Of a stretch of 37,649 nucleotides of DNA, positions 324 to 30,121 are shown piece by piece. Source of the DNA: a virus; IMG/VR virus record IMGVR_UViG_3300035703_000215, positions 1 to 37,649 of that record, one strand, 5' to 3'. The position numbers and the translations under genes are program-made. Each line of letters begins with the position of its first letter. The first letter of the stretch is position 1. The notes beneath the pieces are model-generated. The model searched no databases, was not told the DNA's origin, and saw nothing but the letters and a program-made list of their open reading frames with translations.

Positions 324-2131
324 AGTATATGTCGGACGCCGACGTGGCCTACGACACCGCCTGCGACAACCAGGTGACCTACGGCGAGGGCTACATCCGC
401 CTGCTGACGGAATACTGCAACGACGAGACGTTCGATCAGGACATCCGCATCGCGCGCGTCCGCAACTCGTTCAGCGTCTACATGGACCCGACGATCCAAG
501 ACCCGTGCGGCGCCGACGCTGAGTGGTGCTTCATCACCGAAGACATCCTCAAAGAAGAATACGAACGGATGTTCCCGGACGCGACGCCGATCAGCACGCT
601 GTACAGCCAAGGCGTGGGTGATCAGGGCATCTCGTCGTGGCTTCAGGAAGACACGATCCGCATCGCGGAATATTTCTACAACACCTACGAAAAAGCCACG
701 CTGCACCTGTACCCGGACAACCAGACTGCTTACCGCGGCACGCCGCAGGATAAGCAGCTTACGGCCATGTTCGGCAAGCCGATCCGCAGCCGCGAAGTTG
801 ACCGCAAGAAGGTCATGTGGATGAAGACCAACGGCTTTGACGTGCTGCAAGAGCGCGAGTGGGCCGGCAAGTGGATTCCGGTCGTGCGCGTCATCGGCAA
901 CGAGTGGGAAGTTGACGGCCAGATGTACATCAGCGGCCTTGTGCGGAACGCCAAGGACGCCCAGCGTATGTACAACTATTGGACGAGCCAAGAAGCCGAG
1001 ATGCTGGCGCTGGCTCCCAAGGCACCCTTCATTGGCTATGGCGGCCAGTTTGAAGGCTACGAAATGCAGTGGAAGACCGCCAATACGACCAATTGGCCGT
1101 ATCTGGAGGTCAATCCCGACGTGACGGATGGAGCCGGGGCTGTCCTCCCCCTGCCCCAGCGCGCGCCTCCTCCGTTGCCCCAGACTGGCCTGATCCAAGC
1201 CAAGATGGGGGCTGCTGACGACATCAAGGGAACCACTGGCCAGTACGACGCCAGCCTTGGGATGCAGGGCAACGAACGCTCTGGTAAAGCCATCCTCGCC
1301 CGCGAGAAGCAGGGCGACGTGGGTACTTACCACTACGTCGATAACCTTGCCCGCGCGATCCGCCACATCACCCGGCAGATCGTGGACATGATCCCGAAGA
1401 TTTACGACACGCAGCGCATCGCCCGCATCATCGGCGTTGACGGTGAAGTCGATATGGTCAAGTTCAACCCGTCGCAGGCTGAACCTGTCAAGGAAATCCG
1501 CGACCAGATGGGTGCGCTGATCGAAAAGGTCTACAACCCCAGCGTTGGCACCTACGACGTGATGGTCACGACCGGCCCAGGCTACATGACCAAGCGTCAG
1601 GAAGCCTTGGACGCCATGTCGATGATCCTGCAATCCAACCCGCAGCTTTGGACTGTGGCAGGCGATCTGTTCATCAAGAACATGGATTGGCCGGGCGCGC
1701 AGGAGATGGCAGCGCGGTTTAAGAAGATTCTTGATCCGAAGGTTCTGTCGGAAGGCGATCAGTCGCCTGAGATGATGGCCGCCCAGCAGCAACTGGAGGC
1801 CATGACGCAAGAACTGAACCGCATGACGGACATCATTGCCAACGTGCAGGACAGCGTCGCCCAGCGCGAGGTGGACATCAAGGAATACAAGGCCCAGGTG
1901 GACGCCTACGACGCCGAGACGAAGCGGATCAGCGCCATGCAGCAGAGCATGACGCCAGAGCAGATTCAGGACATCGTCATGGGAACCATCGCTGCGGCGC
2001 TGGACACCGGCGACCTGATCGGCGGCGCGCCGCAGATGCGCGAGATGCCCGACATGGAGATGGAACAGCCTGAGATGCCAGAGATGGGCGAAATGCCGCC
2101 CGAAATGCCGCCTGAAGGAATGATGGAATGA
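2..2131 (+). CDS. Portal protein, P22-like (5' end lies at 37235-37326)
   Basis: The portal forms the dodecameric ring at the capsid vertex through which DNA is packaged and ejected. The sequence resembles P22-type podovirus portals: an N-terminal region with NQWQWPADV and PCLTINKLPQHVRQV, a central region containing GYGGQFEGYEMQWKTAN, and a helical C-terminal part. The tail is unusually rich in Met, Glu and Pro (about the last 35 residues, repeating EMP-type units). Reading frame 2 is open from the first base, and the true start is the ATG at 37235 on the far side of the contig join, giving about 740 residues. The gene follows the terminase block in circular order and its stop overlaps the next start (ATGA). 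The family call is by recognition; the break is an assembly effect, not a mutation. Confidence 0.93.
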   Translation, partial: ATMRHRLKMAQSAYSDSREDELDDLRFMAGSPDNQWQWPADVLATRGSVQGQTINARPCLTINKLPQHVRQVTNEQRQNRPSGKVIPADDNADVQVAEIFNGVVRHIEYMSDADVAYDTACDNQVTYGEGYIRLLTEYCNDETFDQDIRIARVRNSFSVYMDPTIQDPCGADAEWCFITEDILKEEYERMFPDATPISTLYSQGVGDQGISSWLQEDTIRIAEYFYNTYEKATLHLYPDNQTAYRGTPQDKQLTAMFGKPIRSREVDRKKVMWMKTNGFDVLQEREWAGKWIPVVRVIGNEWEVDGQMYISGLVRNAKDAQRMYNYWTSQEAEMLALAPKAPFIGYGGQFEGYEMQWKTANTTNWPYLEVNPDVTDGAGAVLPLPQRAPPPLPQTGLIQAKMGAADDIKGTTGQYDASLGMQGNERSGKAILAREKQGDVGTYHYVDNLARAIRHITRQIVDMIPKIYDTQRIARIIGVDGEVDMVKFNPSQAEPVKEIRDQMGALIEKVYNPSVGTYDVMVTTGPGYMTKRQEALDAMSMILQSNPQLWTVAGDLFIKNMDWPGAQEMAARFKKILDPKVLSEGDQSPEMMAAQQQLEAMTQELNRMTDIIANVQDSVAQREVDIKEYKAQVDAYDAETKRISAMQQSMTPEQIQDIVMGTIAAALDTGDLIGGAPQMREMPDMEMEQPEMPEMGEMPPEMPPEGMME

Positions 2132-2490
2132 AGTGCGCGGACTTTGTAGGGATGCTGTTTCTGGCGCGGGATGTGACCCATTCCGCCCACCTGAACACGC
2201 GCAGCTATGCCAAGCACGTCGCGCTGAACGAGTTCTACGACGGCATAATCGACTTGGCGGACAAGTTTGCCGAAGCCTATCAGGGCAAGTACGGCTTGAT
2301 CGGGCCAATCTCGCTGATGTCGGCCAAAAAGACCAACAACGTGGTCGAGTTCCTCGAAGGGCAATTGGAAGACCTTGAGCAGATGCGCTACAAGGTGGTC
2401 GATAAGGATTGCACCCCGCTCCAGAACATCATCGACGAGATTTTTGGGCAGTACTACTCCACGCTGTATAAGCTGAAATTTCTGGCGTAA
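2128..2490 (+). CDS. Ferritin/Dps-like helical phage protein (DUF5856-like)
   Basis: This 120-residue protein looks all-helical. Its pattern of DVTHSAHLNTRSYAKHVAL, then EFYDGIIDLADKFAEAYQG, resembles a phage family (DUF5856) that is distantly Dps/ferritin-like. The His and acidic residues of the first two helices (H17, H20, H30, E35, D39) sit where ferritin-type proteins place ligands, but I cannot confirm a metal site. The start ATG overlaps the portal stop (ATGA), so translation is probably coupled. Its place between portal and capsid genes suggests a virion-associated or assembly role. The function is unknown; the gene itself is certain from its length and coupling. Confidence 0.7.
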   Translation: MKCADFVGMLFLARDVTHSAHLNTRSYAKHVALNEFYDGIIDLADKFAEAYQGKYGLIGPISLMSAKKTNNVVEFLEGQLEDLEQMRYKVVDKDCTPLQNIIDEIFGQYYSTLYKLKFLA

Positions 2491-8819: not shown

Positions 8820-10382
8820 ATGGCTAACGTCAAAATCTCTCAACTGCCGTTGGCAACATCACCGCTGGACAGCGCGGTTGAGATGCCGGTCGTCCAGGGC
8901 GGCGTCACCAAACGCGCTGGGATGACCACCATCGGCTTCTTGCAGTCTGGTACTGGTGCGGTTCTTCGCACGGCGCAGGCCAAAATGCGCGACATAGTCA
9001 GCGTCGAGGACTTTGGTGCTGTCGGTGACGGCGTGGCCAACGATACCACGGCAATTCAGGCGGCGCTTGATGCCGGTGCGGCGTTGTATTTTCCCGCCGG
9101 CACTTACAACCTGACCGCCAAGCTGACTTCTACCAACAAGCCAGTGCAAATTTTTACCCAGCCCGGTGTGACGCTCAAATGGCTAACCGCGGCCACAACG
9201 CAGGGGCTTGAATTTACGTTTAACAACATCACGACGCATATCTGCCAAATTGGCGACATTGCGCTGATTACCGAAAAGGAAGGTGGTGGCACAGCCATCA
9301 AATGCGTATGGCCTGGCGGCGGAACTGGTTACGCGCGATTGTTTGAAGCCGGCAAAATCCGCGTTTCCGGGGCCGACATTCCGGGCCTCGTTGGTTATTG
9401 GGCAGTGGGTATCGACTTGACAAACGGGTGGTTGGCCTACTGCGATACGCTGGATTTCTATGGCAAGCCCAGCGGAGTAACGCCGCTTTCAACGGCGGCT
9501 TTTGCAGCGCGCGGCACCACGACTGACGCCCGCGTGAATATCCGCGCGCGGTGGGCGCTGTCAGGCTTGCTGATTGCCGGCTTTTCGGAACTGTTGGATA
9601 TTAGCGGTTCTATTTTTGTGGCCTGCGATTGGGCTGTAGATTGCAGCGGCACAAGCGGGCTGAACACGCCCGGTTTCCTTTGGCTGGGCGGTCATTCGTC
9701 AACTTTCCGCGGCTCAATCCGTTCGGTCAACATTCTGCAAGGCAACGTGAACGGAATACTTATATACAAGCGCCTTGACAGCGCGCAAAATTTTATTGCG
9801 TTTGATTTGGACAGCGCATCGACGGAATGGCAGATTGCGGACTGCAAGGTGTTTTCACTGAGCAACCCCGGCGGCGGCACGACCACGGCGATCCGCGATG
9901 CAGGCGTGAACAACACCTGTACAGGCATTCGCACGGTGGGCTGTGATACGGACGTTGACATCGTTGCTAACGCCAGCGGGTTCAGCCACACGATTAGCCG
10001 GTCTGATAATTTGCGAGGCGCTATTACTCAGGGCGACACGGACGGCCAAGTCCTAGTAACGCCGGGCGGCGCACCGGGTTCTTCTGTTAACTATTTCGAC
10101 ACGCTGACGGCTAACAGCGCAACCCCTACTATTCTCGGTTATCGCCAGTGGGCGCCGGGCGGCGGTCACCTTTTGACCGCCAATAGCGGTGCCACTACAA
10201 TCACCAACTTTACCGGCGCGTTCCCCGGCGACGAAATCGTCGTGCAAGCTAATGACGCCAACACCACAATTCAGCACAATGCGGGTTTGTTGCTTGATGG
10301 CGGCGTCAACAAGGTAATGGCCAACGGTGACACGGTTCGCTTGCGGCGCATAAACTCAACAACATGGAAGCAGATTGGATGA
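8820..10382 (+). CDS. Tailspike / tail fibre 1, pectate-lyase-like beta-helix
   Basis: A 520-residue receptor-binding candidate. Residues 1-~65 (NVKISQLPLATSPLDSAVEM, PVVQGGVTKRAG, IGFLQSGTGA) form a conserved particle-binding region nearly identical to the start of the gene at 10504. Next comes VSVEDFGAVGDGVANDTTAI, the signature entry to a right-handed pectate-lyase-type beta-helix, then a long helix region that shares nothing obvious with tailspike 2, and a C-terminal beta domain (PGDEIVVQANDANTTIQH). Such spikes bind or degrade surface polysaccharide, but I see no assignable catalytic residues. The stop overlaps the start of a 40-residue ORF (ATGA). Confidence 0.82.
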   Translation: MANVKISQLPLATSPLDSAVEMPVVQGGVTKRAGMTTIGFLQSGTGAVLRTAQAKMRDIVSVEDFGAVGDGVANDTTAIQAALDAGAALYFPAGTYNLTAKLTSTNKPVQIFTQPGVTLKWLTAATTQGLEFTFNNITTHICQIGDIALITEKEGGGTAIKCVWPGGGTGYARLFEAGKIRVSGADIPGLVGYWAVGIDLTNGWLAYCDTLDFYGKPSGVTPLSTAAFAARGTTTDARVNIRARWALSGLLIAGFSELLDISGSIFVACDWAVDCSGTSGLNTPGFLWLGGHSSTFRGSIRSVNILQGNVNGILIYKRLDSAQNFIAFDLDSASTEWQIADCKVFSLSNPGGGTTTAIRDAGVNNTCTGIRTVGCDTDVDIVANASGFSHTISRSDNLRGAITQGDTDGQVLVTPGGAPGSSVNYFDTLTANSATPTILGYRQWAPGGGHLLTANSGATTITNFTGAFPGDEIVVQANDANTTIQHNAGLLLDGGVNKVMANGDTVRLRRINSTTWKQIG

Positions 10383-10503: not shown

Positions 10504-11775
10504 ATGGCTAATGACAAAATCTCTCAACTGCCGTCGGCAACCTCACCGCTGGACAGCGCGGTTGTAATGCCGGTTGTGCAGGGCGGCGTTACCAAGCAAG
10601 CGCCGGTCAACACCATCGGATTCTTGCAGTCTGGCACCGGCGCAACTTTGCGTACCTCGCAGAACAAGATGCGAGACACGGTAAGTGTTAAAGATTACGG
10701 CGCGACCGGTGACGGTACAACCCCCGATGGGACCGCAATTGCTGCCAGTATTCTTGCCAACAATTCTGTTGATCTGCCGTCAGGCAGTTACAGCAATCCG
10801 TCAACGGCGATCACGCTTCCATTTACAAAAGCATTAAGTTTTGACGCAGGCGCCGCCGTCGTCAATAGCGGCACCGGCACAACCGATTTTCAAGGTACGA
10901 CGATCCGCACAGCTTACAACCCCGCGGGGTTGACCGGCTGGACAGGTTCGGCGTCTGGCAACAGTTTTGAAGGTTTTGCAGTTGACCTAAGCGGATACGG
11001 GCCACGTTCGTTCAGCGGGAATAGCACGCCGACTGCCTTAAGTGGTTCGGTTAGTGTGCCGGCAACGGCGTCGGCGTTTTTTCATGCTAACGGCGTTGCC
11101 GGCTATGTAAAAAACGCCAACACGGCTTCGGTGGGCGCGGTGGCGCTCTATGGGCAGGCAGATCGTAACGCGGCAAGCGCGCTGGTGTGGGGTTTAAACA
11201 CCCGCACAATTGACAACGGGCTGGGTGGCTCGAACGTGTGGGGTTACGAACTTAACCTCAACATTTCAAACATCACTACCACGGCGCTCGGCCTTGATAT
11301 TGTCGGCGGTTCAACGGTTGAGCCGTCATTAAGCGTTGCCGTCAACGTGCAAGCTATTGGCGTTTTTGAAAGCCCGAAAAAGCGGTTTACCTACGCCTTT
11401 CGTTCAGTCAACGCAGCGGCAATCAACGGAATTGAACTTGGTTCGGTTGCGGACGCTAATAGCTCGGCGTCGCAACCTTTCATTATGAACTATGTCAACG
11501 GCAGCGGAGTTACGACGCAAGGTTTGTCTATGCAAGTTGACGGCAGCGGCAATTTCGGTATCATCGGCGGCGTTGCTTCTTCAACCTTGTTCGCGCTCAA
11601 AACGCCGGGGTCAACTGGCGGCCTTATCCAGCTACTCGGCAACAACATTGGCTTTTTTAATGCTTTCCCCGTTGGCAAGCCGACCGTGGCAGGATCAAGG
11701 GGTGGCAACGCCGCGCTGGCCTCGCTACTCACCGCTCTAGCTAATCTAGGTCTTATTACGGATAGCACGACATGA
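10504..11775 (+). CDS. Tailspike / tail fibre 2, paralogous N-terminus
   Basis: A 423-residue protein. Its first ~65 residues repeat those of tailspike 1 (NDKISQLPSATSPLDSAVVM and PVVQGGVTKQAP), followed by VSVKDYGATGDGTTPDGTAI, the beta-helix entry. The body then diverges completely from spike 1. The C-terminus (VGKPTVAGSRGGNAALASLL, ALANLGLI) is a type often seen at the ends of phage fibres. It starts two bases after the first 40-residue ORF and overlaps the second by ATGA. Both spikes probably attach to the same site on the tail hub, giving two receptor specificities or mixed trimers. Confidence 0.8.
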   Translation: MANDKISQLPSATSPLDSAVVMPVVQGGVTKQAPVNTIGFLQSGTGATLRTSQNKMRDTVSVKDYGATGDGTTPDGTAIAASILANNSVDLPSGSYSNPSTAITLPFTKALSFDAGAAVVNSGTGTTDFQGTTIRTAYNPAGLTGWTGSASGNSFEGFAVDLSGYGPRSFSGNSTPTALSGSVSVPATASAFFHANGVAGYVKNANTASVGAVALYGQADRNAASALVWGLNTRTIDNGLGGSNVWGYELNLNISNITTTALGLDIVGGSTVEPSLSVAVNVQAIGVFESPKKRFTYAFRSVNAAAINGIELGSVADANSSASQPFIMNYVNGSGVTTQGLSMQVDGSGNFGIIGGVASSTLFALKTPGSTGGLIQLLGNNIGFFNAFPVGKPTVAGSRGGNAALASLLTALANLGLITDSTT

Positions 11776-11894
11776 GCCAGCATGACGCCCTTCTTGCCTG
11801 CTACCAGAGCGGCCAGATGACCGAACGTCAGTTGCAGGCGCACATGCGTGACGACCCTGCGTTCGCTGACTACGTGCGTGAAAAGGTAAAATGA
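11772..11894 (+). CDS. 40-residue conserved tailspike-linked protein, copy 2
   Basis: Second copy of the ORF at 10379, again coupled to the preceding tailspike stop (ATGA) and to the following gp10-like start (ATGA). The sequence is almost the same as copy 1 (MTERQLQAHMRDDPAFADYV), with Tyr4 to His, Phe8 to Leu and the final Arg to Lys. The two copies also stay similar in DNA, with several silent changes. This indicates a cassette duplication with purifying selection on the peptide, or recent gene conversion. Confidence 0.7.
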   Translation: MSQHDALLACYQSGQMTERQLQAHMRDDPAFADYVREKVK

Positions 11895-13522
11895 AAAGTC
11901 CTATCCTTGGCTCAAGCTATGTCGCCCGCAGCATCAACGCTGCGGACGCGCGCATGGTCAACCTCTTTCCAGAGGTTGTGCCTGAGGGTGGGCAGATGCC
12001 TGCGTTCCTCAACCGCGCGCCTGGGCTGAAGCTACAGCAGGCCGTTGGCACCGGGCCGATCCGGGGGCTGTGGGCGCACCAGACGCAAGGCTCTGACTTC
12101 TTCGTCGTGTCGGGCAACGAAGTCTACAAACTGTCTTCGCTGACCGGCACGCCGGTGCTGCTGGGAACGGTCAACGGCACTGGGCCGGTGTCCATCGCCG
12201 ACAACGGCGACCAGATCGTCTTCGCGTGCAACCCGGACGCCTTCGTCTACACCGAATCCACCAACACGTTCGTGCAAGTCACCGATCCTGACTTCCCCGG
12301 CGCGGTGACGGTCGGGTATCTCGACGGCTACTTCGTGTTCAACCCGCCCAACAGCCAACGGCTGTATGTCACCAGCCTGCTGGACGGCACGCAAATCGAC
12401 CCGCTGGATTTTGTCAGCGCCGAAGGATCGCCAGACGGCATCGTCGGCTTGATCGTCGATCACCGCGAAGTGTGGGTGTTCGGCACCGACAGCACCGAAG
12501 TCTGGTACAACGCCGGCACGGCGGACTTTCCGCTGGCGCGCATCCAAGGCGCATTTAACGAGATCGGCTGCGTCGCGCCCTATTCCATTGCGAAGCTGGA
12601 CAACGGTGTGTTCTGGTTAGGAACCGACGCCCGCGGCCAAGGCATCGTCTACCGGGCGACCGGCTACGTCGGCCAGCGCGTGTCCACGCACGCGGTCGAG
12701 TGGCAAATCCAGCAATACCTCAACATGTCCGACGCAGTGGCGTACACCTACCAGCAGGACGGCCACGCCTTCTACGTTCTGAACTTTCCCTCAGCCAACA
12801 CGACGTGGGTTCTGGATGTGGCCACCGGGGCTTGGCACGAACGGGCTTATTTCAACGAAGGCGTGTTCTCGCGTCACCGCGGCAACAGCCAATGCAACTT
12901 CTTGGGCAACATCGTCATCGGCGATCACCTGAACGGCAACATCTACACCTTTGACCTAACGACCTACGCCGACAACGGCACGCCGCAGAAGTGGCTGCGG
13001 TCGTGGCGGGCGTTGCCGACCGGCCAAAACAACCTGAAGCGCACGGCGCAGCACAACCTTCAGATCGTGTTTGAGTCTGGCGTGGGCCTGTCGGGAACCG
13101 CTTCGCCTGATGTTTTTGGTTTGCTGCTGACCGAAAATGGCAACTTCCTTATCACCGAATCAGGCAACTATATTGAAATTTCCGTGGTGACCCCGCAAGA
13201 CATCAACTCGCAAGTCTTGCTGCTTGAGGATGGCGACTTTCTCATCACCGAATCCGATGAATACATTGAAGTTTTAGCTGGAACTACGCAGGGCGCAGAC
13301 CCGCAAGTTATGCTGCGCTGGTCGGACGACGGCGGCCACACATGGTCAAATGAGCATTGGACATCCATCGGCAGGATCGGCGGGTACGGCCAGCGCGCCA
13401 TCTGGCGCCGCCTGGGCATGACGATGAAACTGCGCGACCGCGTGTACGAGGTGTCTGGCACTGACCCGGTCAAGCTGGTCATCATCGACGCCGAACTGAT
13501 GTTGAGCGGCACCAATGCCTAA
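11891..13522 (+). CDS. Tail hub / packaged-DNA stabilisation protein, P22 gp10-like
   Basis: A 543-residue protein whose N-terminus (SPILGSSYVARSINAADARM, VNLFPE) and C-terminal segment (DPQVMLRWSDDGGHTWSNEH) match the P22 gp10 family. This protein forms the tail hub below gp4 and carries the tailspikes. It is somewhat longer than P22 gp10 (472 residues). Much of the excess lies near residues 400-465, where a 19-residue motif ending FLITES-x-x-YIE occurs twice, 31 residues apart, just before the conserved DPQVMLRWSDDGG. The position directly after the spikes supports the call. The start overlaps the 40-residue ORF; the stop overlaps the next start by eight bases. Confidence 0.85.
   Translation: MKSPILGSSYVARSINAADARMVNLFPEVVPEGGQMPAFLNRAPGLKLQQAVGTGPIRGLWAHQTQGSDFFVVSGNEVYKLSSLTGTPVLLGTVNGTGPVSIADNGDQIVFACNPDAFVYTESTNTFVQVTDPDFPGAVTVGYLDGYFVFNPPNSQRLYVTSLLDGTQIDPLDFVSAEGSPDGIVGLIVDHREVWVFGTDSTEVWYNAGTADFPLARIQGAFNEIGCVAPYSIAKLDNGVFWLGTDARGQGIVYRATGYVGQRVSTHAVEWQIQQYLNMSDAVAYTYQQDGHAFYVLNFPSANTTWVLDVATGAWHERAYFNEGVFSRHRGNSQCNFLGNIVIGDHLNGNIYTFDLTTYADNGTPQKWLRSWRALPTGQNNLKRTAQHNLQIVFESGVGLSGTASPDVFGLLLTENGNFLITESGNYIEISVVTPQDINSQVLLLEDGDFLITESDEYIEVLAGTTQGADPQVMLRWSDDGGHTWSNEHWTSIGRIGGYGQRAIWRRLGMTMKLRDRVYEVSGTDPVKLVIIDAELMLSGTNA
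13124..13273 (+). repeat. Tandem 31-residue repeat inserted in the gp10-like gene
   Basis: Bases 13124-13180 and 13217-13273 encode two copies of a 19-residue motif, LLTENGNFLITES and LLLEDGDFLITES each followed by two residues and YIE. The period is 93 bases. The surrounding protein reads as gp10 family on both sides. The DNA copies differ at many third positions, so the duplication is not recent. Confidence 0.75.
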
Positions 13523-15525: not shown

Positions 15526-15861
15526 ATGTCTGTTACCGCCAAAGCCCTGATCCCGGCCAAGGTCGCCGAAGACACGCAGTCCACGCAGTACACTGCGACC
15601 AACGTGACGACGATCATCGACAAGTTTACGGCCACCAACTACGGCGCGTCCGCCGCGTCGATCAGCGTCAACCTAGTGACGGCAGCCGACACCTCTGGCA
15701 CGCAGAACCTGATTGTGAAGACCAAGACGCTCCAGCCGTCCGAAACCTACACGTTCCCGGAACTGGTGGGCCACGTCCTCAACCCGAATGGGTTCATCTC
15801 GACGCTGGCGTCGGCGCCGCTGACGATCAACATCCGCGCGTCGGGACGTGAGATTAGCTGA
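15526..15861 (+). CDS. Small beta-sandwich virion protein, unknown function
   Basis: A 111-residue protein with a Shine-Dalgarno (AAGGATAGG) before ATG. Its strand pattern (TNVTTIIDKFTATNYGASAA, SISVNLVTAAD, GREIS at the end) resembles small phage proteins predicted to form an Ig-like sandwich. It lies between the fibre genes and the cupin-SET gene, with its stop overlapping that gene's start (TGATG). A tail accessory role is inferred from location only. Confidence 0.58.
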   Translation: MSVTAKALIPAKVAEDTQSTQYTATNVTTIIDKFTATNYGASAASISVNLVTAADTSGTQNLIVKTKTLQPSETYTFPELVGHVLNPNGFISTLASAPLTINIRASGREIS

Positions 15862-16715
15862 TGCTGGCGCGCGTTGACGATCTTGTGCCGACTGCGCCGT
15901 TCACGGAAACGGACGTTGAAAAGTTGGAAACGGCTTTTCTTCAGCACGAACAAGCTGACTGCCCAGTCCATCACCACTTTGGCCCAGGTGTCTACATCCG
16001 CGAAGTCGTGTTGCCGACCGGGGCGTATGTCATCGGACATCGGCACAAGACGCCGCACATCAACATCATGCTGGAAGGCCGGATCACGCTGATCGGCCAA
16101 GACGGCGGCCATACCGAACTGACCGCGCCGCAGACGTTTGTGAGCGGCGCCGGGCGCAAGATCGCCTACATCCATGAGACGGTGCGCTGGCAGAACGTGT
16201 ACGCCACCGACGAGACAGATGTGGAAACGCTGGAAGCGCAGCTTTTGGATAAAAGCATCGCCTTTGAGGAAGCCCAAAAAGCCAACGGTCTGTTGTTGTC
16301 GTATGACGCCCACGCGGATCAGGATGACTTTGCCGCGGCAATTGCTGAGTTTGGATTCGACGCCGACACGGTCTGGGCCATATCGGCGGATGAGAGCGAC
16401 CAGATTCCGCTGCCGCACGGCGGCTACAAGATGATGGTGGCACCGTCGTCGATCCACGGCAAGGGCGTGTTCGCCACCGGCGACATCGCCGCGCATGAGT
16501 TGATTGCGCCGGCTAGGCTTGGCGGAAAACGCACGCCGGCTGGGCGGTTTACCAACCACTCAAAAACGCCAAACGCGGTTATGATCAAAAGCGACAACGG
16601 CGATATTTTTTTGTTCTCAAGCCAGTCGATTTCTGGCTGCAAAGGTAGTAGTGTCGGCGCGGAGATAACCGTGGATTACAGACAGGCGCTATCGCTGTCG
16701 GTAGGAGATAAGTGA
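15861..16715 (+). CDS. Cupin-SET domain fusion protein
   Basis: A 284-residue two-domain protein. Residues ~50-120 form a cupin barrel: GAYVIGHRHKTPHINIMLEG carries the H-x-H and Glu pattern that binds a metal in many cupins, and ETVRWQNVYATDE is the second strand set. Residues ~190-275 carry the marks of a SET lysine methyltransferase: SSIHGKGVFATGDI (S-adenosylmethionine-binding GxG strand), NHSKTPN (residues 232-238), and GAEITVDY ending in the catalytic-type Tyr273. The SET domain is compact, with no visible post-SET cysteines. Starts are coupled on the left (TGATG), and GGAG precedes the next gene. It sits among tail and ejection genes, so the target could be a virion or host protein. 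Activity is not shown by sequence alone. Confidence 0.75.
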   Translation: MLARVDDLVPTAPFTETDVEKLETAFLQHEQADCPVHHHFGPGVYIREVVLPTGAYVIGHRHKTPHINIMLEGRITLIGQDGGHTELTAPQTFVSGAGRKIAYIHETVRWQNVYATDETDVETLEAQLLDKSIAFEEAQKANGLLLSYDAHADQDDFAAAIAEFGFDADTVWAISADESDQIPLPHGGYKMMVAPSSIHGKGVFATGDIAAHELIAPARLGGKRTPAGRFTNHSKTPNAVMIKSDNGDIFLFSSQSISGCKGSSVGAEITVDYRQALSLSVGDK

Positions 16716-16716
16716 A

Positions 16717-17496
16717 ATGTCAGCCGTAGCAGCAGCAGTTATTGGCGGCGTGGCAACGCTGGGCGGCGGTTTGATCGCAGCCGGCGGTGCTAAAAAGGCT
16801 GCCAACGTTCAGGCAGAGGCCGCCCGCGAAGCGCAGGCCGCCAACGAACGGGCGTTGGAGCGTCAGATCGGGCTGCAAGAACCGTTCCGTCAAGCTGGCC
16901 TTACCGCGCAACAGCAGATCATGCAGTTGCTGGGGGTCGGCGGCGATGCGTCAGCGGAGGGCTACGGCAGTCTGGCCAAACCATTTGGCCAGACTGACTT
17001 TGAGCAAGACCCAGGCTACGCTTTCCGCCAGTCGGAAGGTATGCGTGCGCTGGAGCGCAGCGCGTCGGCCCGCGGCAATCTGCTGTCAGGCGGCACACTG
17101 CGCGGCATCCAACGGTTCGGGCAGGACTTGGCCAGCCAAGAGTACGGCAACGCCTTCAACCGCTACCAGATTGAGCGCAGCGCGCGCTTGAACCCGCTCC
17201 AGTCGCTGATGGGTTCTGGCCAGTCGGCGACCAACGTCATGACCGGCGCAACTGGTCAGGCCGGGCAGAATGAAGCCGCTAACCTTTATGGTGCCGGGCA
17301 GGCCCGCGCGTCTGGCTACGTCGGGCAGGCTAACGCACTGGGCGGCGCACTCAGCAGCATCGGCCAAGCGGCAGCATCGTACCCGCTGATGCAAGCGCAG
17401 ATGAACTATTTTAACTCGTTGGGTCGCGGGGGTGCCGGCGGTAGCGGCGGTATGACGCCTATCCCAGCGGGCGCGTACCGTGGCATCGGCGGTTAA
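16717..17496 (+). CDS. DNA ejection protein, gp7-like
   Basis: A 259-residue protein with a hydrophobic Gly/Ala-rich N-terminal segment (AAAVIGGVATLGGGLIAAGG) that may insert in a membrane. A helical Gln/Ala/Glu region follows, then the conserved block DPGYAFRQSEGMRALERSAS, RGNLLSGGTLRGIQRFGQDL, EYGNAFNRYQIERSARLNPL. This block is typical of injected internal proteins in podoviruses (P22 gp7 group and relatives). Such proteins leave the head with the DNA and help cross the cell envelope. GGAG lies ten bases upstream. It is followed by two further large ejection-type proteins. Confidence 0.78.
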   Translation: MSAVAAAVIGGVATLGGGLIAAGGAKKAANVQAEAAREAQAANERALERQIGLQEPFRQAGLTAQQQIMQLLGVGGDASAEGYGSLAKPFGQTDFEQDPGYAFRQSEGMRALERSASARGNLLSGGTLRGIQRFGQDLASQEYGNAFNRYQIERSARLNPLQSLMGSGQSATNVMTGATGQAGQNEAANLYGAGQARASGYVGQANALGGALSSIGQAAASYPLMQAQMNYFNSLGRGGAGGSGGMTPIPAGAYRGIGG

Positions 17497-17509: not shown

Positions 17510-19171
17510 ATGGCTAACCAAGCAATCGCCCTTCAATCCCGCGCACCGCAAGGCAACTTCTTGGCGCCTGCGATCCAGCAGGGCGCGCAGTTCATCAACA
17601 TGATGTCGCAGCAGCGTGCTGCTGAACGTCAGGCGGCGGCGCAGCAACAGCAGTTGGATATCGCGCGGACGCAAGAATCGCGGGCTGCGGCGTTGGCCGT
17701 TCCGCAGCTAAACAAAGCAACGTCCGAAGCTACTGCTGAGTCACTTAAAACCGGCGAGCTATTCAATCAAGCCATCTATACGGCGGCGGCTAACTCCAAT
17801 TCGCCGGAAGATTTTTTAGCGTTCGCGCAGCGCATTGCAGCGGCTCCGCAATTTCAAAACAATATGTTTTTGGGCGGCCTAAAGGAAGTGGTGGCGTCTC
17901 TTCCCGCTGACCCCGCGCAGTTTCCTGAATGGCAACGGCAGACCGGCATTAAGACTGTCGAAGCCGCTAAACGTTATAAAAATAACCCCATGCAGCAAAA
18001 CCTCGGCACAACTACGCGGGTACTCAATGTGCCTGAGTACGGCGGCGGCGCGGCGCAAGTTGTCCCTGGTTCGGAAGCGGCGGTCACGATCAAGCCTACC
18101 GTACTCAATGTGGAAGGTATCGGCGGGGTCATCGTAGACCCCAACACCGGGCGCGGCTTTCCAATTGCTGCTGGCCAGACCGGCGGCTACACGCCGCCGG
18201 GCCTTGTTGGTGGCGACCGCGGGGGCGGCGTTGCCGCTACGCCTGTGGCTACGGCGCTTCAGACCAACCCCGGCGCGATCCGCGACGGCGCGTTCGCGCG
18301 TTCGCAGCCCGGCTACGCGGGCGCCAGCGGCGGCTTTGCTACATTTAACACGCCGCAGGAGGGCGCTGCCGCGCAGGAAAACTTGCTGCGTAAGGATTAC
18401 GTCGGCAGCGGCATCAACACGGTAAACAAGATTATTGATAAATATACGCCGGCATCTAAGGAAAACCCTGAAGCCAACCGTAACAACTATAAGAACTACG
18501 TCGCGGGTAAGTTGGGTATCAATCTCAACGCACCAATCACTGCGGCGCAAGTCCCTGCGCTTGCGGCGGCTATGCGCGAGTTTGAAACCGGACAGCGCCC
18601 CGCCCGCGCAGCCGCACCCGCCGCCGAACCGAAGACAATCAATCAGGTTGAAACTGAAAAAGCGTTTAAAAAGACGCTGCCTTTGTTTGGGTACAACCCC
18701 GACACAGGCACCGAAAAAGTCTCCGATTTGATCTCCGCATCTACCAGCGGCGGTTTGGAAAAGATTGGTTCTGACGTGGTTGGCTTCGTTACTGGCGAAG
18801 CTACGCCAGGGCGTCAAGCGTTGGGCCAGCTTGAAACCATCAAGGACAACATGACGTTTGAAAAACTGCGCGGCAAACTGGGCGCGCAAATTTCAAACGC
18901 TGACGTTCAGTTGGTTTCTAACACGATGGCCGATATCGCCAACCCAGATAAGCCTGCCAATCAGCGGCTGGCTTCTTGGCAGAACGTGGTTTTGCCAATC
19001 CTTCTGCGCGGCGCCGGCATAGAGCCTAAGGCGCAACCCGCCGCGCCATCGGCTGCTGGGCGCCAGACGCCTACCGCTGTGCCGGTTTTAACGCCCGAAC
19101 AAGTGCGCGCCAACCCTAACATCAAGCGTTGGAGGCGCGCGGACAACGGAGAGGTCATGACCCGGCCATGA
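17510..19171 (+). CDS. Internal virion protein with muralytic (P5-like) domain
   Basis: A 553-residue protein. The N-terminus is Gln/Ala-rich helix. Residues ~253-363 (NPGAIRDGAFARSQ, GGFATFNTPQEGAAAQENLL, GINTVNKIIDKYTPASKENP, NYVAGKLGIN) match the pattern of a lytic-transglycosylase-like domain found in phage structural proteins such as PRD1 P5-type peptidoglycan enzymes. This could open the murein locally during DNA entry. The rest is low-complexity and helical. It sits between two other ejection proteins and its stop overlaps the next start (ATGA). The muralytic call is by motif; the catalytic Glu cannot be assigned with confidence. Confidence 0.72.
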   Translation: MANQAIALQSRAPQGNFLAPAIQQGAQFINMMSQQRAAERQAAAQQQQLDIARTQESRAAALAVPQLNKATSEATAESLKTGELFNQAIYTAAANSNSPEDFLAFAQRIAAAPQFQNNMFLGGLKEVVASLPADPAQFPEWQRQTGIKTVEAAKRYKNNPMQQNLGTTTRVLNVPEYGGGAAQVVPGSEAAVTIKPTVLNVEGIGGVIVDPNTGRGFPIAAGQTGGYTPPGLVGGDRGGGVAATPVATALQTNPGAIRDGAFARSQPGYAGASGGFATFNTPQEGAAAQENLLRKDYVGSGINTVNKIIDKYTPASKENPEANRNNYKNYVAGKLGINLNAPITAAQVPALAAAMREFETGQRPARAAAPAAEPKTINQVETEKAFKKTLPLFGYNPDTGTEKVSDLISASTSGGLEKIGSDVVGFVTGEATPGRQALGQLETIKDNMTFEKLRGKLGAQISNADVQLVSNTMADIANPDKPANQRLASWQNVVLPILLRGAGIEPKAQPAAPSAAGRQTPTAVPVLTPEQVRANPNIKRWRRADNGEVMTRP

Positions 19172-27398: not shown

Positions 27399-29369
27399 TC
27401 AACCCTTTCCATAACGTTGCATGATAGCCACTTCCGCGTTCAGCGGCAGGCCAGCGGCCCAGAGCGGCGGTGTACACATGATCTTGACCAGCGCGGCGGC
27501 GGCGTCCTCGGCGGTGCTGGCGTCGGTCTCCAGCACGATTTCGTCGTGGACGTGCAGCACTACGTCGAACCCTTCTTCCTCCAACCGCCGCAGCGCGTGC
27601 CGCAGCAGATCGTTGGCGATGGCCTGTGTGATGTTTTCGCAGGCCAGACCGCGCCACAGGCGGGCGCGGGGCCATTCCTTTGCGTCAGCGGCGGGCTTCC
27701 ACGCCGCCTTGGCGTATGTGATGTTGCCCTCCTCATCGAAGCGGGCGAACGGGTAGCATAGCACACGGCCTGACGGCAGTGCATACCAAAGATGCTGCTT
27801 GTCGTATAAATATGTCACGCGGCCCGCGGCGATCTCTTTGCCTGGGTGGCGCATGGCACCGGTGTACGCCCGCTCCAGCGCCGTCCAGTAGTTGACCGAC
27901 CACGGGTTCGCCCGGCGCCAGCCATCCACCATCTTGCGGCTGTCGCTCTCGGTCAGGATGACGTTGTAGATGCGGCCCATGCTGGCGAAGGCACCCACAC
28001 CGCCGGCGAAGCCGCAGGCCAACTCCTGCACCTTGCCGATCTGACGCTGTTCCTTGTCCACGTCATCATAGCGGACGTGGAAGGTTGCTGCGGCGTTGTG
28101 CTTGTACACGTCCTCGCCGCGCGCGAAGATGCCCAGCTTCTCTGCACCGCTGTTAGTGTTCGACGCCCAGGGCGTCACCCGCGCCTCAATGGCGGCCCAA
28201 TCGGCCACCACCAGTCGCTTGCCTTCAGGAGCCATCAGCGCCGGGCGCAGCATCCCCTTCAGCACGTCGGTGATCCGGCGTCCGAACTGCGGTACGATCT
28301 TGTGACCGCGCACCATTGCCTGCCGTGCTAGTGCAGGGTCGTCGGCGCATCGTCGTGGGAAATTATGAACTTGCAGTCCAAATGATGAAGCGCGGCCTGT
28401 AGCACTACCTCCAGCGAATACGAACGCTCCTCTAACTCGTTGATCCTCATCGTCTGAGAGCGCAGCCGCGCGCGCAAACTTTGCAACTGACGACGCCCAT
28501 AGGTCGTCTGCACATTGGATAACTTCAGCGACGACGGGCGGTACTTCATCGGGGTTTTCCTCTGCCAGAGCCAACAGATTGAAGCGGACGTTCTTGTCGA
28601 TTGATAGCTTGGGTTCGCCGTCCTTGTAAACCGTCGCCAGTTTGAGCGCCTGCGGCCCGACACGATCCAGCACCCACGCCCGCATCTTGGGGCTGCGCAC
28701 GGACGTGATCTCGCCGCCGGTGGCCTCCTCGACCGTCTGCTGGATGTCAGTAGACTCGGCGTCGGCGTACTGCACGGCAGCCAGCGCCAGCGGGCGATCC
28801 AGCAGCACGCCGCGGTCGTTGATGCGCTCGTTGACGTGGTAGTCGCGCAACTCATCAGCAGACAGCGGGCGCTGCGCTTGGCTGACGGCGCGCATGGCGC
28901 GCACATCGCTCTCGCAGTAGGCGACCATCTCAGCCATCAGGCCGGGGTCGTCGCGGAAGGTGCCATCCGCCTGCGGGATCGACAGCAGCCTGATCAATTG
29001 TGATCCGCGGTGATCTTTTTTCATGGACGCGCCAGCGAAGCGGCCCACATCCTCCAGGCTGCCCGGCGCGCAGTTGGCGCGGGCTTGCGCTGCGGTGCAG
29101 TAGAACTGCTCTAGCGCGTAGTCGATCTGTAGGACGTACCAGCACACCAGCCGCTCGAACGCGGCGTTGTGCGCCCGTATCTGGCCGGTGTGGTGGCGCA
29201 CGTCAGCCGGGAACGGCTGACCTGGCAGCCATGTCCGCACGTCATCATCGTCGAAGGCGTAGGACATACACAGCACGTCGGTGCTGGCGTCCTGCGCGTA
29301 GTTGTAGACGCCCTTCGCCGGCAAGTCACAGCGGCTGCGCGTCTCGAAATCGAGCCATAGGATGCTCAT
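27399..29369 (-). CDS. DNA polymerase I, family A, with 3'-5' exonuclease
   Basis: A 656-residue polymerase without a 5' nuclease domain. Exonuclease motifs: LDFET (D7, E9), AHNAAFE (N68) and YCESDV (D155). Polymerase motifs: GRASSFGLQVHNFPR, motif A VVADWAAIEARV (D390), the O-helix EQRQIGKVQELACGFAGG (R442, K446) and motif C HVHDEI (H608, D609). Alignment with E. coli Pol I puts L450 at position 762 and F454 at 766. The gene is intact. Its start overlaps the stop of the PAPS-reductase-like gene (ATGA). It replicates the phage genome together with the primase-helicase next door. Confidence 0.94.
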   Translation of the reverse strand: MSILWLDFETRSRCDLPAKGVYNYAQDASTDVLCMSYAFDDDDVRTWLPGQPFPADVRHHTGQIRAHNAAFERLVCWYVLQIDYALEQFYCTAAQARANCAPGSLEDVGRFAGASMKKDHRGSQLIRLLSIPQADGTFRDDPGLMAEMVAYCESDVRAMRAVSQAQRPLSADELRDYHVNERINDRGVLLDRPLALAAVQYADAESTDIQQTVEEATGGEITSVRSPKMRAWVLDRVGPQALKLATVYKDGEPKLSIDKNVRFNLLALAEENPDEVPPVVAEVIQCADDLWASSVAKFARAAALSDDEDQRVRGAFVFAGGSATGRASSFGLQVHNFPRRCADDPALARQAMVRGHKIVPQFGRRITDVLKGMLRPALMAPEGKRLVVADWAAIEARVTPWASNTNSGAEKLGIFARGEDVYKHNAAATFHVRYDDVDKEQRQIGKVQELACGFAGGVGAFASMGRIYNVILTESDSRKMVDGWRRANPWSVNYWTALERAYTGAMRHPGKEIAAGRVTYLYDKQHLWYALPSGRVLCYPFARFDEEGNITYAKAAWKPAADAKEWPRARLWRGLACENITQAIANDLLRHALRRLEEEGFDVVLHVHDEIVLETDASTAEDAAAALVKIMCTPPLWAAGLPLNAEVAIMQRYGKG

Positions 29370-30121
29370 GGCTTTTCTTCGCAGAAGATGCCGCAGTCAA
29401 TATCCATGCTTTTCATCGACCGGCCCTTGGCCGCAGGGTCTAACTCATCAAGAAATACCCGGCGGTTGTCCACGCGAACCAGCCGCGCGCCCAACCGCCG
29501 CGATTGTTCGGCGCGATCCTGAAACACGTCAGGGTGCTGCTGGCGGACGTGGTTCCAATATGTCGGCGACGTGGCCTTCACACACCCGATGCAGTTAGCG
29601 TTGGGGTAGCCCATACGATACACACGCGGCAGCGTAAGGCCCGCGTCCTGCAAGATGGCGTAGCAATCGTTTTTGGTCACGCCGTTGTCTATCAGCACCG
29701 GCAAGACGTTGCTGCGCTCGGTCAGGACAAACCTGTCGTGCCGCGTCTTTTCGTCGGCGGTGAACCCCAAGACGTGCCAGTCGGCGCGGTTCTCCGCTTC
29801 CCAATCCTGCCGCGCCCGCTTCTTTAGTTCTATCGTGCAGGGCGCGCCCTTCGGGCCGCTCATGAACGAACGCTGCTCCCACACATCGCGCGCAGATTGC
29901 AGCGGGTAGCGCCGCGCTGCGACCGTCTCAATCTCGACGCCAAGCCAGGCTTGAACGTCCAAGAGAAACCGCCGGTTGTCGGCGTCCTCCTCCACCACAG
30001 GGTTGTTTAGGATGCGGATGCGCGCTGTGCTGGCGTACTTGTCCAGCGTCAGCTTGGCAGCGACCGCGCTTGCTGCGCCGCATGAAAACCACACGGCGAT
30101 AACGTCATCATTATTGATCAT
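29366..30121 (-). CDS. PAPS reductase-like PP-loop protein
   Basis: A 251-residue adenine nucleotide alpha-hydrolase-type protein. The PP-loop is a variant, WFSCGAASAVAAK (residues 11-23), where SCGAAS replaces the usual SGGxDS. Later segments GVTKNDCYAILQDAGLTLPR and NANCIGCVKATSP carry a Cys pair, and Cys residues recur at the C-terminus (DCGIFC). Phages encode this family widely; relatives act in sulfate reduction, tRNA thiolation and DNA phosphorothioation (DndC). No other dnd genes are seen. Location upstream of the polymerase suggests a nucleic-acid or nucleotide role, but the substrate is unknown. Confidence 0.82.
   Translation of the reverse strand: MINNDDVIAVWFSCGAASAVAAKLTLDKYASTARIRILNNPVVEEDADNRRFLLDVQAWLGVEIETVAARRYPLQSARDVWEQRSFMSGPKGAPCTIELKKRARQDWEAENRADWHVLGFTADEKTRHDRFVLTERSNVLPVLIDNGVTKNDCYAILQDAGLTLPRVYRMGYPNANCIGCVKATSPTYWNHVRQQHPDVFQDRAEQSRRLGARLVRVDNRRVFLDELDPAAKGRSMKSMDIDCGIFCEEKP

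What the first reader, a model, noticed from the sequence alone, without database searches (positions are those of the whole stretch)
15861..16715. Phage protein fusing a cupin barrel to a SET lysine-methyltransferase-like domain
The C-terminal third carries the three SET signatures in order (HGKGVFA, NHSKTPN, GAEITVDY with Tyr273), and the N-terminal half carries a cupin metal-site pattern (GHRHKTPHINIMLEG). SET domains are mainly eukaryotic and scattered in bacteria. Here one lies in a late operon between tail-fibre and DNA-ejection genes, coupled by TGATG. It could methylate lysines on an ejected or tail protein, or a host protein at infection. The cupin may act as sensor, carbohydrate-binding or substrate-recruiting module.
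Basis: partly seen in the sequence, partly recalled or inferred. Interest (0 to 1): 0.8.

Follow-up and report, generated by a model that had tools for sequence, protein, structure and literature searches.

The report
Phage cupin–SET protein beside ejection genes
This short-tailed phage carries a protein that joins a barrel-shaped cupin domain to a histone-methyltransferase-like SET domain; the gene sits directly before the gene for the first protein the phage injects into its host, which suggests it chemically modifies phage proteins while the particle is built.

Summary
ORF 15861-16715 encodes 284 aa: cupin barrel, helical linker, C-terminal SET domain. Pfam SET passes its curated cut-off, 26 of 27 relatives match it, and a confident AlphaFold model (pLDDT 88.5) matches cupins and MLL1/EZH2 SET domains. 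At least 500 viral stretches encode the SET; of those read, nearly all are the same fusion (PHROG 34170, function unknown). SAM-binding and catalytic motifs (GxG, NHxxxPN, GxExTxDY) are invariant and under purifying selection, but the substrate-shaping SET-I insert (~35 aa) and the YxG tyrosine are missing. The cupin metal site is degenerate.

The new result is the position. The cupin, with or without SET, sits between the tail nozzle and the first ejection protein; a gp7-family gene follows it in 113 of 116 distinct SET-bearing loci. P22 gp14, T7 gp13 and GNAT acetyltransferases occupy the same position in other podoviruses, and no searched record carries both types. I therefore favour an assembly-stage enzyme that modifies ejection or other virion proteins over a host-targeting effector; substrate and activity are untested.

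The parts
15861..16715 (+). cupin-SET protein, 284 aa
   Evidence: (PHROG 34170 E=3.8e-81)
15942..16256 (+). cupin (jelly-roll) domain, residues 28-132
   Evidence: A3 alignment; Foldseek hits to RmlC-like cupins, prob 1.00; PHROGs 12032 and 24280
16038..16058 (+). degenerate cupin metal-site motif H60-x-H62-xxx-H66 (62 and 66 are Gln in many relatives; fourth His absent)
   Evidence: alignment with TM1459 and relatives
16257..16421 (+). helical linker, residues 133-187, part of the SET module in split versions
   Evidence: DSSP of the model; linker present in L140 and L142 SET-only ORFs
16422..16703 (+). reduced SET domain, residues 188-281, without the SET-I insert
   Evidence: Pfam SET; A2 alignment; PDB profile hits MLL1 1.9e-8, EZH2, PBCV-1 vSET
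16458..16466 (+). SET motif I, G200-K-G202
   Evidence: invariant glycines in 25 of 25
16554..16574 (+). SET motif NHSKTPN, N232 to N238
   Evidence: N, H, P, N invariant; aligned with MLL1 NHSCEPN
16656..16679 (+). SET motif GAEITVDY with candidate catalytic Tyr273
   Evidence: G, E, T, D, Y invariant; aligned with MLL1 GEELTYDY
15526..15861 (+). 111-aa gene overlapping the start (TGATG); conserved neighbour in part of the family
16717..17496 (+). first ejection protein (P22 gp7-like, phrog_598), directly downstream
   Evidence: E=2.1e-35; adjacency in 113 of 116 SET-bearing loci
11891..13522 (+). nozzle / head-closure protein Hc3 (P22 gp10-like)
   Evidence: E=6.2e-130
17510..19171 (+). second ejection-module protein by position, with lysozyme/tape-measure-like stretch
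   Evidence: gene order as in P22

Best explanation
A morphogenesis protein of a P22-like short-tailed phage. The cupin half is the conserved body that fills the gene position between the nozzle and the first ejection protein (the position of P22 gp14 and T7 gp13). Inferred: it binds an ejection or tail-module protein during assembly, and the added SET domain uses S-adenosylmethionine to methylate lysine(s) of that bound protein; the gp7-like protein made next from the same message, or a partner, is the likeliest target. Shown: fold, conserved motifs, purifying selection, fixed position, optional and repeatedly gained or lost SET module. Not shown: SAM binding, activity, substrate, presence in virions.
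For: SET motifs invariant across relatives down to about 41% identity; SET profile finds MLL1, EZH2 and PBCV-1 vSET; SET dN/dS median 0.11 against 0.07 for the cupin. A gp7-family gene is directly downstream in 113 of 116 distinct SET-bearing and 21 of 28 cupin-only loci; in most of the others the next ORF begins with a similar hydrophobic N-terminus. The same position holds the cupin in P22-like, T7-like Krylovirinae and Zobellviridae phages. That position holds gp14 in P22, gp13 in T7, and annotated GNAT acetyltransferases in BcepIL02, ctMlz233, BUCT555, Mx8 and Itty13. The 55 cupin records and 44 GNAT records do not overlap. The JC1 GNAT was not among proteins found in purified virions (PMC9144972); cobavirus authors equate their GNAT with T7 gp13, suggested to act in virion morphogenesis (PMC6775973). 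Fused in most phages, split but overlapping in Paraburkholderia (L142), and SET without cupin next to an ejection-like module in L140.
Against: No lysine of the gp7-like protein is conserved across SET-bearing phages (best column 62%, and Arg in the window), so one fixed gp7 site is unlikely. SET-I and YxG Tyr are missing, so substrate binding must differ from known SET enzymes. Cupin-only phages manage without SET, so methylation is dispensable. P22 gp14 as GNAT fold rests on a poor model (pLDDT 45). PHROGs names the cupin 'short tail fiber' or 'tail fiber adhesin', which would make it a virion surface protein.
Confidence: 0.42

Rival explanations
1. Structural tail protein: the cupin barrel is a receptor-binding or needle-tip element of the tail and the SET domain (a beta-clip fold) is a second structural or ligand-binding module without methyltransferase activity.
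For: PHROGs labels for the cupin: short tail fiber, tail fiber adhesin; neighbouring tail-fibre-like genes; SET lacks SET-I and the YxG Tyr.
Against: Catalytic Tyr and NH/GxG motifs are invariant, which a structural role would not require. Cupin is under strong purifying selection, unlike typical host-range adhesins. The labels rest on annotation, with no virion data found. The position matches gp14/gp13, not fibres.
Confidence: 0.25
2. Host-directed effector: the protein is packaged and ejected, or made late, and methylates a host protein to help infection.
For: Gene next to ejection proteins; a phiKMV-like phage N-acetyltransferase, Rac, is reported to inactivate host RNA polymerase (cited in PMC10504331).
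Against: Late-operon position inside the virion module in nearly every lineage seen; strict linkage to gp7 rather than to early genes; the only copy seen beside replication-type genes without an ejection module is the split one, L142.
Confidence: 0.15
3. The SET methylates a different virion protein, such as the adaptor (gp4-like, three lysines conserved in 96-98%) or the upstream 111-aa protein (one lysine conserved in 100% of those present), with the cupin as an assembly chaperone.
For: Lysine conservation; 111-aa gene overlaps the start and is present in part of the family.
Against: Lysine conservation has other causes and cupin-only phages were not compared; the 111-aa gene is absent from many SET-bearing loci.
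Confidence: 0.15

Closest known systems
PHROG 34170 (cupin-SET phage proteins, e.g. Rhodoferax phage P26218 gp30)
   Same: Full-length match over residues 16-279, same gene order
   Different: Nothing essential; the family has no described function
SET-domain lysine methyltransferases (MLL1/KMT2A, EZH2, PBCV-1 vSET)
   Same: Fold; GxG, NHxxxPN and GxExTxDY motifs in order
   Different: No SET-I insert (about 35 aa shorter than MLL1), no YxG Tyr, extra GCKGG-type insert before motif III, no post-SET Cys cluster, fused to a cupin
Phage cupin 'short tail fiber' / 'tail fiber adhesin' families (phrog_12032, phrog_24280; VvAW1, BA3)
   Same: Homologous cupin, same position before the ejection protein
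   Different: No SET domain; in most phages read the protein ends 8-48 residues after the cupin
TM1459-type manganese cupins
   Same: Barrel fold; H60/H62/H66 align with the metal histidines HSH...H
   Different: Fourth His absent; two of the three replaced by Gln in many relatives
P22 gp14 (DUF2824), T7 gp13, and phage GNAT acetyltransferases (phrog_4470)
   Same: Same gene position between nozzle and first ejection protein; GNAT and SET enzymes both act on amines
   Different: Unrelated sequences and folds; acetyl rather than methyl transfer expected

Membership tests
SET domain family (PF00856) | Score above Pfam gathering cut-off | tested here: met
   26.5 vs 22.4 bits; 26 of 27 relatives have a SET match at E<=0.1
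SET domain family (PF00856) | GxG, NHxxPN and GExxxxDY motifs with catalytic Tyr | tested here: met
   invariant in 25-27 relatives
SET domain family (PF00856) | SET fold | tested here: met
   model pLDDT above 90 over most of the domain; Foldseek MLL1 E=3.4e-4, prob 1.00. Pseudoknot threading not inspected atom by atom
SET domain family (PF00856) | SET-I substrate-shaping insert and YxG Tyr | tested here: not met
   7 profile positions against 42 residues in MLL1; P217-A218 in place of E-Y. A variable feature: lowers the enzyme claim, not the fold claim
SET domain family (PF00856) | SAM-dependent lysine methylation | not testable with these tools
   needs biochemistry
Cupin superfamily | Cupin fold | tested here: met
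   Foldseek prob 1.00 to many cupins; Pfam Cupin_2 below cut-off
Cupin superfamily | Four-residue metal site | tested here: not met
   three His in the window, fourth not conserved; two positions His/Gln in relatives
Phage tail fibre adhesin (phrog_24280 / phrog_12032) | Sequence match | tested here: met
   E=4.9e-29 and 7.7e-34, cupin part only
Phage tail fibre adhesin (phrog_24280 / phrog_12032) | Located on virion surface and binds receptor | not testable with these tools
   no virion data found for it
P22 gp14 / T7 gp13 morphogenesis proteins | Gene position between nozzle and first ejection protein | tested here: met
P22 gp14 / T7 gp13 morphogenesis proteins | Sequence homology (DUF2824, PF11090) | tested here: not met
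   no DUF2824 in the window genome; the window protein matches only SET and Cupin_2 in Pfam. Analogue by position only

The most novel reading that the evidence does not exclude
Podoviruses keep an amine-modifying enzyme position directly before the first ejection protein: acetyltransferase folds in P22 (gp14), Bcep22-like, Mx8-like and others, a SET methyltransferase here. Covalent modification of ejection-module proteins would then be a general, unrecognised maturation step, with different chemistries replacing each other.
Probability: 0.25. Interest if true: 0.85.

Novelty: new variant of a known kind. Interest (0 to 1): 0.62.

Why it matters
SET domains are studied mostly as eukaryotic chromatin enzymes. 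Here a reduced SET is a recurrent, selected module on a phage virion-assembly gene. If active, it would give a protein-methylation step in phage assembly and a way to ask what the little-understood P22 gp14 and T7 gp13 do: the same gene position holds GNAT-type and SET-type folds, so one mass-spectrometry experiment on virions could test a shared function.

Tried and rejected
Sequence search of the PDB with the single protein found nothing; profiles were needed. Search for one conserved target lysine in the gp7-like protein: none. Fold of P22 gp14: model poor, hits uniformly N-acetyltransferases, kept as a lead only. The Acetyltransf_3 Pfam model found no GNAT in any of the 21 phage records, including BcepIL02, so it was too insensitive; phrog_4470 finds BcepIL02 but not T7 or P22. 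BcepIL02 gp64 shows no similarity to the 111-aa neighbour. Literature searches found no paper on a phage cupin-SET protein. L052 and L168, where the SET frame is broken, were treated as interrupted SET-bearing copies, not as natural SET-free ones, when reading the tree; the automatic count still scored L168 as lacking SET.

Full report
Observation. The ORF at 15861-16715 encodes 284 aa. The quoted motifs are at the stated places, and the ordered three-motif SET pattern is absent from 200,000 shuffles of the protein. Pfam SET passes its curated cut-off; Cupin_2 is sub-threshold. In a 27-member alignment, 26 members match SET. AlphaFold gives pLDDT 88.5 and pTM 0.86 with a barrel, a helical stretch and a second beta domain; Foldseek finds cupins and MLL1/EZH2 SET domains in the PDB and, in the viral library, cupin-only phage proteins plus phage SET proteins.

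The family. Among loci read, nearly all are the same fusion. PHROG 34170 is this family, function unknown. Cultured members include Rhodoferax phage P26218 and Pseudoalteromonas phage PH1.

SET anatomy. G200, G202, R229, N232, H233, P237, N238, G266, E268, T270, D272 and Y273 are invariant. Profile alignment to MLL1 places them on MLL1's own motifs. Between motif I and the NH motif the family has 7 profile positions where MLL1 has about 42 residues, so the SET-I insert is absent; P217-A218 stand where MLL1 has Glu-Tyr of YxG. An extra GCKGG-like insert precedes motif III. Pairwise dN/dS is low in both domains (medians 0.11 SET, 0.07 cupin). Catalysis is therefore probable by inference, not shown.

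Cupin anatomy. H60, H62 and H66 align with three metal histidines of TM1459, but in many relatives positions 62 and 66 are Gln and the fourth His is not conserved. A binding or scaffolding role is more likely than metal catalysis.

Position. The window has portal, scaffold, coat, adaptor and Hc3 genes of P22 type. Cupin-only relatives occupy the same position in Vibrio, Shewanella and Thalassomonas phages, in T7-like Krylovirinae between tail tubular B and internal virion proteins (VAC_51 has the same order), and in Zobellviridae. A gp7-family gene is directly downstream in 113 of 116 distinct SET-bearing loci; the three exceptions have an ORF with a similar hydrophobic N-terminus. In P22 this position is gp14, in T7 gp13. 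In five other podoviruses it is an annotated GNAT acetyltransferase. None of the 55 cupin records is among the 44 GNAT records.

History. On a cupin tree (104 columns, many forks unresolved) most SET-bearing proteins form one group; L056 is a cupin-only branch inside it, sister to SET-bearing L029 with full support, and PH1 has SET inside the BA3/VvAW1 cupin group. The tree needs 4-5 changes. L142 has cupin and SET as separate overlapping genes; L140 has SET without cupin, upstream of an ejection-like module with an endolysin-domain internal virion protein. A domain that is added, lost and split on one constant partner points to functional coupling (inference).

Mechanism. I favour an assembly-stage protein whose cupin binds an ejection or tail-module protein and whose SET methylates it. 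The GNAT of JC1, in the corresponding place, was not found in purified virions (PMC9144972), and cobavirus authors matched their GNAT to T7 gp13 (PMC6775973); both fit a morphogenesis role. Against a single gp7 target, no gp7 lysine is conserved. The P22 gp14 fold result is weak: a pLDDT 45 model whose listed top 50 PDB hits are all acetyltransferases, best E 1.7e-3.

Verdict. Real, conserved, not described in the papers searched. New variant of a known kind: reduced SET on a cupin virion-module protein.

Noticed in passing
window 16422-16703 vs L010: Window and L010 differ far less at silent sites in the SET part (dS 0.21) than in the cupin part (dS 0.92), which suggests exchange of the SET module by recombination.
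   Followed up: partly
window 29366-30121 (-): PAPS-reductase-like gene (phrog_424); BcepIL02 and JC1 carry a PAPS reductase near their ejection genes.
   Followed up: no
window 2128-2490 (+): Small gene matching phrog_858, starvation-inducible transcriptional regulator, right after the portal gene.
   Followed up: no
window 8820-10382 and 10504-11775 (+): Two tandem tail-spike-like genes share nearly the same N-terminus, with different C-terminal parts.
   Followed up: no
L303, L304, L305, L306, L307: GNAT acetyltransferases, described as 'moron' genes in some phages, sit in the nozzle-to-ejection position in five podovirus lineages.
   Followed up: partly
L136, L138, L139: Cupin-SET phage genes on short contigs filed under Lentisphaera, Bathyarchaeota and Armatimonadetes MAGs; probably phage contigs binned with the wrong organism.
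   Followed up: no
L052, L168: SET reading frame broken or cut short in these contigs; sequencing error or decay not distinguished.
   Followed up: no
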